From: Tubulanus polymorphus
Lineage: Eukaryota > Nemertea > Palaeonemertea > Tubulaniformes > Tubulanidae
DNA length: 64,000 bases
Assembly: GCF_964204645.1 (NCBI RefSeq)
Contig: NC_134027.1
Location: 1-64,000 of the forward strand
Reading direction: 5' to 3'
The notes beneath the pieces are model-generated. The model worked only from the letters and a program-made list of their open reading frames with translations. It was not told the DNA's origin and did no database searches. Both the position numbers and the translations under genes were made by a program. Below, piece after piece: positions 32,319-35,300 of the stretch (its first letter is position 1; every line of letters begins with the position of its first letter).

Positions 32319-35300
32319 GTAAGTAATATTGTATTTCATAACGACAAAAACTCGAAGATGAAATCAAAACCAATTCACTGTTGAATTCGAGTTTTTGAAA
32401 CACGAATAATTCAACGGTTTTCTTCAGTCGAAATAAAACGAAATCAAACCCGGAAGTAAATATTCTCTGTCGTGTGACTGTTGTTACCAGACCTACTGTG
32501 ATAGTGTAGGCTGTAGGCCCTACTGTCTGTCACACTAATGGCCCATTTTGGTCGTCAGAAAATGAGCGGTTACCGGTGTCTTATTCGGTTTTTCAGAAAT
32601 GAAATTTGAACATCGTATTAATAAACTACGAGTATTCTTGCAACCATGGTAACAAAAACCGACGATTTTCGGCTATCTCGTATTTGTCGGAAGTACGTCG
32701 TTAATCCTAACCGTTGGTAATTAGTCGGTAAATAACTGCTAAATAACTGACGATATTGAACAGACAATTTACCAAATTACCGACATTTAATCGACCAAAT
32801 AACCGTTCATCTACCGCAAGGGCCAATAGTGTCACACCTGCTCTCCGTGTGACGTTTTGGTCCGTTATTTCCTTAATAATCGGTTGATCTGCGAATATTA
32901 TGCATCAATTTGTTCAGTGAGGATTTTGCATTCAGAAATTAATTATGAATTGGCATTAATTTGTTTGTGTTTTCATTTATCAGCGATAGTTTACCTAGCA
33001 TACGCTCGCGTAATGCTAAAAAACGGCTTTTCCGGCCCGTCGCGTGGCGTCACCTACTGTATTTTGATATGCTAATGAGCAGGTGATGACGTCACTGTAA
33101 CGTTTCCGAGCGTCCGCTGAGCGGATTTTCCAGCATTATACGCGAGCGTATGCCGAGTAAACTATCGCTCATAAATGAAAACAAAAACAACTTAAGTGGA
33201 AATTGTTGTTTATTTCTGAATGCAAATTCCTCACTGAACAAATGATGCGTAATAAATGTAGATAAACCGATTATTAACGAAATAACGGATGAAAACGTCG
33301 CACGAAGAGCAGGTGTGACAGACAGTAGTAGTCAGTGTCTGTAACCTGGTGACATGGCTTAAAAAGCAGTATTTGCTATTTAGTATCCATGGAGTTCTGT
33401 TACCGAGTTCTAAAAGTGATTTGTAGTAAGGGTCTCTTAGATCGACAGTTCATCTCCATTGTTGGAGTGAGCTAAAACCCTGTCCCTCGATCCCAGCCAC
33501 GGGTAATCCACGCGTCACCCAGCCCCTCGATCCCAGCCACTTTGAATAAGGGTAATCCATGCACAGGTATGTCCGTTCGTCGGTAGGCCTATGTCGGTAT
33601 GTTCGCACGTCCCTAAAGCGTAATGTCGTAAGATTCAATCAGTCTAATGTTGGCGGATTTATTTCAAATACTAGTCCAATGTGATAAGTCTCTGCTGGAA
33701 CTATTTAATGCTATAATGGACTTGAGCGGGTTCTCCTACGGTTCCTCTAGACTCAGTAGTAGGCAGTCAGCCTACACCATAAACATGTCTCAGTAGTAGG
33801 CAGTCAGCCTACACCATACACATGTCTCAGTAGTAGGCAGTCAGCCTACGCCATACACATGTCTCAGTAGTAGGCAGTGAGCCTACACCATACACATGTC
33901 TCAGTAGTAGGCAGTCAGCCTACACCATACACATGTCTCAGCAGTAGGCAGTCAGCCTACGCCATACACATGTCTCAGCAGTAGGCAGTGAGCCTACACC
34001 ATACACATGTCTCAGCAGTAGGCAGTGAGCCTACACCATACACATGTCTCAGTAGTAGGCAGTCAGCCTACACCATACACATGTCTCAGCAGTAGGCAGT
34101 CAGCCTACACCATACACATGTCTCAGTAGTAGGCAGTCAGCCTACACCATACACATGTCTCAGTAGTAGGCAGTCAGCCTACACCATACACATGTCTCAG
34201 TAGTAGGCAGTCAGCCTACACCATACACATGTCTCAGCAGTAGGCAGTCAGCCTACACCATATGCAGCAAAAGTGATGTTTATGTTTTTTAATTAAGAGT
34301 TGATAAAGACCGAAGTGGTGCTATCAATACAACTGAATTACAGCAGGCATTGTCTAATGGTATGAAACTTTATATTATGCACTCACTCCATCATCGTTAC
34401 TTAGAGTTTATCATGGTTCATTAAAACCTCAGTCGGACTCGGTTGTTGATTTATTTCATCAGGAGAATCTGAAGTTAACAGAAACAGTTCTATTTTCAAC
34501 CAAAAGTCTCTCAAGTTTACAGTTTTTTTCATGATAAACTCAGTAGGTTATTGGTGAACTCTGTCTGTGCTTGCCCTCTGAATACTTCAGCTCCACAGTT
34601 GTGTGTTAGATTTAACTAAAAGTTCAGTTTATTTATCCAGCTAGTCAAAATATTACTTTTTCAAAATATTACTACTAGTTCCTAGGTTAAAATCAGGACC
34701 CCGAACCCGGTTCAACAGTTGTTGCGAGTTAAGAATTTGAATCTGGAGTGGGAAGTCAATGGATTGAACGGTTGGTTAAATCTAACTCACAACTGTGGAA
34801 CTGGAGCCAGTTTTCACAGTTGTGGTTCAATTCCTTGAATTGAAATCAGTTCATTTGATCAAATCTTTTTAGATTTAACAAATTACGTGTGTATAACTGT
34901 GTAACTGGGTTCGTGAGTTGTGTAAGCATGTCAGCAGTAGCATGTCTGTATTCTAAAACCTCTCCATATTCTCTATAGGATTGATACAGATCGTAGCGGG
35001 GCTATCTCAGGTGATGAACTCGGCCGTGCTTTATCTAATGGTAAGCATTTCAAACCATTCCAAAATTTAAATCGATTCTTTTGGTTACGTTCAAATAATC
35101 CGAGCCGATATTGAAAATCTGGAGCTGGTTTTCATCGACAAGTACAGTAGACCACGCTTAATTCGGATCATTTAGGACTGACGTGAAATCCAGATTAGAC
35201 CATCTTCATATTTTGAGGATAGTTAATATTAAGCTGATCGTTAAGCAGGGTTTACTGGATTTATATCTGAACCTGTTCCACAGTTAATATACTAATTACT

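What the first reader, a model, noticed from the sequence alone, without database searches (positions are those of the whole stretch)
34298..35040. ALG-2 gene with two mutually exclusive EF-hand 1 exons
Seen: two 62-bp exons (34298-34359 and 34979-35040), each with good splice sites, identical phases and an intact EF-hand loop ([12 protein letters not shown] versus [12 protein letters not shown]), in one intron interval. Because 62 is not a multiple of 3, including both or neither shifts the frame, so only one can be used per productive mRNA. Inference: the gene makes two Ca2+-sensor isoforms differing in EF1 flank residues (LQQALSN versus LGRALSN), a region next to the partner-binding surface in mammalian ALG-2. 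Mammals vary ALG-2 by a two-residue Gly-Phe splice, not by EF1 exchange. I know of no described EF1 switch.
Basis: partly seen in the sequence, partly recalled or inferred. Interest (0 to 1): 0.88.

Follow-up and report, generated by a model that had tools for sequence, protein, structure and literature searches.

The report
Calcium sensor gene with swappable exon
An animal-type gene for the calcium sensor ALG-2 carries two old, well-kept versions of the exon for its first calcium-binding loop, only one of which fits in a working message; such exon pairs are known in other genes, and RNA data are still needed to show that both are used here.

Summary
The window carries an ALG-2/PDCD6 gene (six coding exons, 179 aa). 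Two 62-nt versions of exon 2 lie 619 nt apart between exons 1 and 3, with GT-AG sites, the same phase and the key EF1 calcium ligands. They share 38/62 bases and 14/21 residues. Synonymous sites are saturated (dS about 2.6, dN about 0.35); in neutral simulations this much protein conservation came up about 2 times in 10,000 at most, so selection kept both for long. Using both or neither gives an early stop, so one-at-a-time use follows from the frame plus (inferred) nonsense-mediated decay. Intron pairing was not clearly above shuffles. The functional guess is only partly supported: of five mammalian pocket-3 positions in the exon, four are unchanged and one is V/I. Differences lie mostly in the calcium loop (net charge -1 versus -3) and at two helix positions, so I favour tuning of the EF1 calcium response over a partner switch. 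EF-hand exon swaps are known in alpha-actinin and CaV2; ten searches of an open-access library listed none for ALG-2. No transcripts or related animal genomes could be searched.

The parts
32257..32318 (+). ALG-2 coding exon 1 (ATG to donor), [20 protein letters not shown] + 2 nt
34298..34359 (+). exon 2a, EF1 version [21 protein letters not shown] (first codon shared with exon 1); 17/21 to human ALG-2; weaker donor
34360..34978 (+). 619-nt intron between 2a and 2b; no unusual pairing shown
34979..35040 (+). exon 2b, EF1 version [21 protein letters not shown] (first codon shared with exon 1); 13/21 to human ALG-2; stronger donor
36279..36323 (+). coding exon 3
37752..37910 (+). coding exon 4 (EF2 loop, EF3)
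37998..38107 (+). coding exon 5 (EF4)
39675..39776 (+). coding exon 6 with stop (EF5)

Best explanation
The gene is an ALG-2 (PDCD6), the only ALG-2 locus seen in this genome, whose EF1 exon was duplicated in tandem long ago and both copies kept. They are used one at a time: only an mRNA with exactly one of them keeps frame (shown), and double-inclusion or skipped products meet an early stop and would be removed by nonsense-mediated decay (inferred). The two proteins differ at seven residues, all in EF1. D36, D38, S40 and E47 (human numbers) are kept in both and the -x position is N in 2a and S in 2b; four of five Pocket 3 residues in the exon are identical. So the likeliest effect is a shifted Ca response of EF1 (loop net charge -1 in 2a, -3 in 2b), with changed residues at positions 49/50 as a second possibility (inferred). 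The confidence given is for a functional mutually exclusive pair; the Ca-tuning step alone is less certain.
For: Equal length, phase, GT-AG borders and position. Both isoforms read to a complete penta-EF-hand protein; skip and double forms stop early. Nei-Gojobori pS 0.73, pN 0.28, dS 2.57, dN 0.35, ratio about 0.13; 12 of 21 third positions differ against 12 of 41 first and second positions, Fisher one-sided p 0.032. Neutral simulations, 200,000 in each of 6 settings: open and at least 14/21 identical in 5e-6 to 2.05e-4; open with loop intact in 5.8e-4 to 2.75e-3. The 2b donor scores 4.73, in the range of exons 1, 3, 4 and 5 (4.58-5.19). Between 34360 and 36278 no other ALG-2 exon matched by tblastn below E 0.3 except EF-hand cross-matches to 2b, so a single-exon duplication is likelier than a gene remnant. 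These are the sequence criteria used to predict mutually exclusive exons (PMC3923563, passages); 377 (60%) of human clusters contain exons with lengths not divisible by three (PMC5740500, passages).
Against: No transcript was available. The 2a donor is weak (1.81; matrix recalled), so 2a may be little used. Being open is in itself weak evidence: 46-75% of neutral simulations stayed open. No dedicated device for exclusion is shown: best intron duplexes were reached by 5 of 14 and 1 of 14 shuffles, and the three donors looked at are not U12-type by eye. dS is at saturation, 21 codons are few, and the ratio averages both branches. Without relatives, conservation of either copy as an exon is not shown directly.
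Confidence: 0.8

Rival explanations
1. One copy is an unused or decaying duplicate: still recognisable but no longer spliced.
For: The 2a donor is weak, and no transcript evidence was available.
Against: Both copies keep the loop and splice sites although synonymous sites are saturated; neutral drift gives this much protein conservation in at most about 2e-4 of simulations. A recent loss of use cannot be excluded.
Confidence: 0.12
2. The second exon is mainly a dosage switch: double inclusion or skipping makes decay-prone mRNA that lowers ALG-2 level, and the protein difference is secondary.
For: Both off-frame products stop 253-281 nt before the last junction.
Against: A pure poison exon needs no EF-hand coding, yet the pair keeps the loop and 14/21 residues against saturated synonymous change.
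Confidence: 0.06
3. Within the mutually exclusive reading, the exons switch partner choice (Sec31A-type Pocket 3 binding) rather than Ca response. Not exclusive of the best explanation.
For: Exon 2 contains Pocket 3 residues; positions 49/50 change from QQ to GR and V35 to I (PMC4346919 passages).
Against: Four of five Pocket 3 positions in the exon are identical. The 2016 review states that sequences like the ALG-2-binding motifs had not been found in yeast and invertebrate ALIX and Sec31A (PMC5037681, passage).
Confidence: 0.2

Closest known systems
alpha-actinin (ACTN1/ACTN4) EF-hand exon pair
   Same: Tandem duplicated exons, used alternatively, that change residues of EF-hand motifs (PMC9741552, passage).
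   Different: There only one version keeps Ca binding (same passage); here both keep the main ligands. Different protein family.
CaV2 channel e37a/e37b exon pair
   Same: Mutually exclusive exon pair that changes a residue of an EF-hand (PMC5818475, passages).
   Different: Channel protein; the passage describes an effect on Src-kinase inhibition, not a soluble Ca sensor.
Mammalian ALG-2 deltaGF122 isoform
   Same: Splicing of the ALG-2 gene that alters Ca affinity and target choice (PMC5037681, PMC2927601; passages).
   Different: Two residues removed by an upstream donor at the exon 4 end. Here the bases six nt upstream of the exon 4 donor are not GT, so that isoform cannot arise in the same way.

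Membership tests
ALG-2 (PDCD6), penta-EF-hand group I | Overall sequence match to ALG-2 rather than sorcin or other PEF proteins | tested here: met
   Human PDCD6 E 1e-70 against sorcin 6.4e-33 with the first 146 aa
ALG-2 (PDCD6), penta-EF-hand group I | Five EF-hand units, EF5 at the C-terminus | tested here: met
   Five units read in the 179-aa translation, EF5 in exon 6; Pfam EF-hand models on the first 146 aa
ALG-2 (PDCD6), penta-EF-hand group I | Dimerises and binds partners in a Ca-dependent way | not testable with these tools
   needs protein assays
Mutually exclusive exon pair | Neighbouring, similar length, homologous, same reading frame, conserved splice borders | tested here: met
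   62 and 62 nt, 14/21 aa, same phase, GT-AG; criteria from PMC3923563 (passages)
Mutually exclusive exon pair | Junction reads bridging each exon and no productive 2a-2b junction | not testable with these tools
   no RNA data held
Mutually exclusive exon pair | A device that enforces exclusion | tested here: inconclusive
   Frame shift with early stops shown; RNA pairing reached by 5 of 14 and 1 of 14 shuffles; branch points not mapped

The most novel reading that the evidence does not exclude
An animal lineage retunes the Ca threshold of its ALG-2 adaptor by swapping the EF1 exon between cell types: an isoform system separate from the mammalian deltaGF122 one, leaving the Pocket 3 partner site almost untouched.
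Probability: 0.3. Interest if true: 0.62.

Novelty: new member of a known kind. Interest (0 to 1): 0.45.

Why it matters
ALG-2 links Ca signals to membrane trafficking (ESCRT and COPII, PMC5037681), and EF1 is needed for partner binding in human: E47A lost binding to Sec31A and ALIX (PMC4346919, passage). A natural pair of EF1 variants that differ at seven residues but keep the main ligands and most of the pocket would be a ready-made test of what EF1 contributes, and a further case of exon swapping in an EF-hand.

Tried and rejected
Related loci: one scan each of genome contigs and viral contigs with an exon 3-4 peptide gave no relative (118 and 20 stretches matched a pattern, none confirmed). 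These collections are prokaryotic and viral, so this says nothing about animals. I used 1 of 8 viral scans.

Processed copies as fossils of transcripts: none recognised. The 40-aa spliced peptide gave 5 matches, all in the window gene or two peflin-like genes. The 146-aa peptide gave 74 matches at E up to 10; beyond the window gene and those two genes the rows were 20-45% identical and were not followed up.

RNA pairing between introns (36-nt windows, step 12, 14 shuffles each): not clearly above shuffles; 1 of 14 for the pair flanking 2b is weak, not a clean negative. The inverted arms flanking 2b belong to a repeat with 23 matches in the window against 0.34 expected, so they are no evidence of a docking site.

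Flank homology of the two exons: none seen (300 nt each; downstream 256 of 300 shuffles reach the observed score, upstream 27 of 300).

Organism: a COX1 search of the own genome found nothing; species not identified. A first guessed EF-hand DNA pattern had no match.

Literature: ten answered searches, the full cap; lists were cut to 15 of 20 and 15 of 335. No listed title or abstract start reports an EF1 exon pair in ALG-2. I read passages only, found by search terms, of eight papers (PMC5037681, PMC2927601, PMC4346919, PMC9177970, PMC9741552, PMC5740500, PMC3923563, PMC5818475). Subscription papers and genome annotations were not searched.

Full report
What is there. The window is the start of contig C3 of a 268-Mb genome in 77 contigs. 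On the + strand lies an ALG-2 gene: coding exons 32257-32318, 34298-34359 or 34979-35040, 36279-36323, 37752-37910, 37998-38107 and 39675-39776. The last exon was found by tblastn. Either choice of exon 2 gives a 179-aa protein. The first 146 aa match human PDCD6 at E 1e-70, far above sorcin at 6.4e-33.

The exon pair. Each exon has 62 nt, equal phase and GT-AG borders; 38 of 62 bases agree. The proteins share 14 of 21 residues; 2a shares 17 of 21 with human ALG-2 and 2b 13 of 21. A tblastn of the exon peptides over 30-42 kb (E up to 5) showed no third EF1 copy beyond cross-matches to the other EF-hands, and between 34360 and 36278 nothing from other ALG-2 exons below E 0.3 except EF-hand cross-matches to 2b. 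DNA searches of the whole genome with each exon returned only itself; that search did not even pair 2a with 2b, so it would miss copies as diverged as these. The 40-aa spliced peptide with 2b matched only this gene and two genes that look like peflin (5 matches). In those two, EF1 and the GTWTPF-like part lie in one open exon; the peflin label rests on their GAP-rich N-terminal repeats and is recalled, not tested.

Has selection kept both? Synonymous sites are saturated (pS 0.73) while pN is 0.28. Third positions differ in 12 of 21 and the others in 12 of 41 (p 0.032). With 24 random changes, an open exon with at least 14/21 residues kept came up in 5e-6 to 2.05e-4 of 200,000 trials per setting, over six settings; an open frame alone came up in 46-75%, so openness by itself means little. 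This argues for protein-level selection during most of the pair's history. It does not date the duplication, does not separate the two branches, and does not show present use.

Exclusion. Skipping gives a stop ending at nt 123 and double use at nt 219 of the coding sequence, 253 and 281 nt before the last junction; both would be decay targets by the usual rule (established knowledge, not tested). In human, 377 (60%) of mutually exclusive clusters contain exons of lengths not divisible by three, and steric interference was assigned where donor and branch point lie under 50 bp apart (PMC5740500, passages). The intron here is 619 nt, though I did not map the branch point. The best pairing between intron 1 and the middle intron (-26.5) was reached by 5 of 14 shuffles, and that between the middle and following introns (-29.9) by 1 of 14. 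So no structure-based device is shown; the second value leaves a little room. The 2a donor scores 1.81 and the 2b donor 4.73 with a recalled matrix; the pyrimidine fractions upstream are 0.71 and 0.82. This suggests 2b as the default and 2a as the exon needing help (inference).

What differs in the protein. From 2a to 2b, at human numbering, the differences are V35I, K37T, N44S, T45G, T46D, Q49G and Q50R. D36, D38, S40 and E47 are in both (ligand roles recalled; E47 as an EF1 coordinating residue is in PMC4346919). Pocket 3 residues named in PMC4346919 that lie in this exon are V35, L48, A51, L52 and S53; only V35 changes, to I. Loop net charge is -1 in 2a, -3 in 2b and -2 in human. I therefore favour a change in EF1 Ca response over a partner switch; this is inference. 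No structure was modelled.

Known or new. Tandem duplicated exon swaps that affect EF-hands are known in ACTN1/ACTN4, where only one version keeps Ca binding (PMC9741552, passage), and in CaV2 (PMC5818475, passages). Mammalian ALG-2 varies by an upstream donor at the exon 4 end that drops Gly121-Phe122 (PMC2927601, PMC5037681, passages); here no GT lies six nt upstream of that donor. Ten searches of the held open-access library listed no paper on an EF1 exon pair in ALG-2. Annotations of other invertebrate genomes could not be searched, and such isoforms may sit there unremarked.

Verdict. A sound, probably functional mutually exclusive exon pair in a gene where I found none described: a new member of a known kind. 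Transcript proof and relatives are missing.

Noticed in passing
33752-34262, 37069-37697, 38997-39630: Three introns of this gene hold a tandem array (37-nt x13.8, 18-nt x34.9, 42-nt x15) that stops 35, 54 and 44 nt before the next exon, as if expansion ran up to a limit set by the acceptor region. Not tested against chance.
   Followed up: no
34587-35285 and elsewhere in the window: Repeat AACTGTGGAACTGG: 23 matches in the window at up to 2 mismatches, 0.34 expected; five lie around exon 2b in both orientations.
   Followed up: partly
L021 and L022 (G000 C4 about 3.569 Mb, C8 about 12.200 Mb): Two genes that look like peflin (GAP-rich repeats; name recalled); EF1 and the following segment lie in one exon, unlike ALG-2 here.
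   Followed up: partly
47071-50121, - strand: 1016-aa open frame with C2H2 zinc fingers (Pfam zf-C2H2 E 6.6e-39); looks spalt/SALL-like (name recalled).
   Followed up: no
32830-33320: Large imperfect hairpin element in intron 1 (arms of 81 and 105 nt, 85% and 84% complementary).
   Followed up: no
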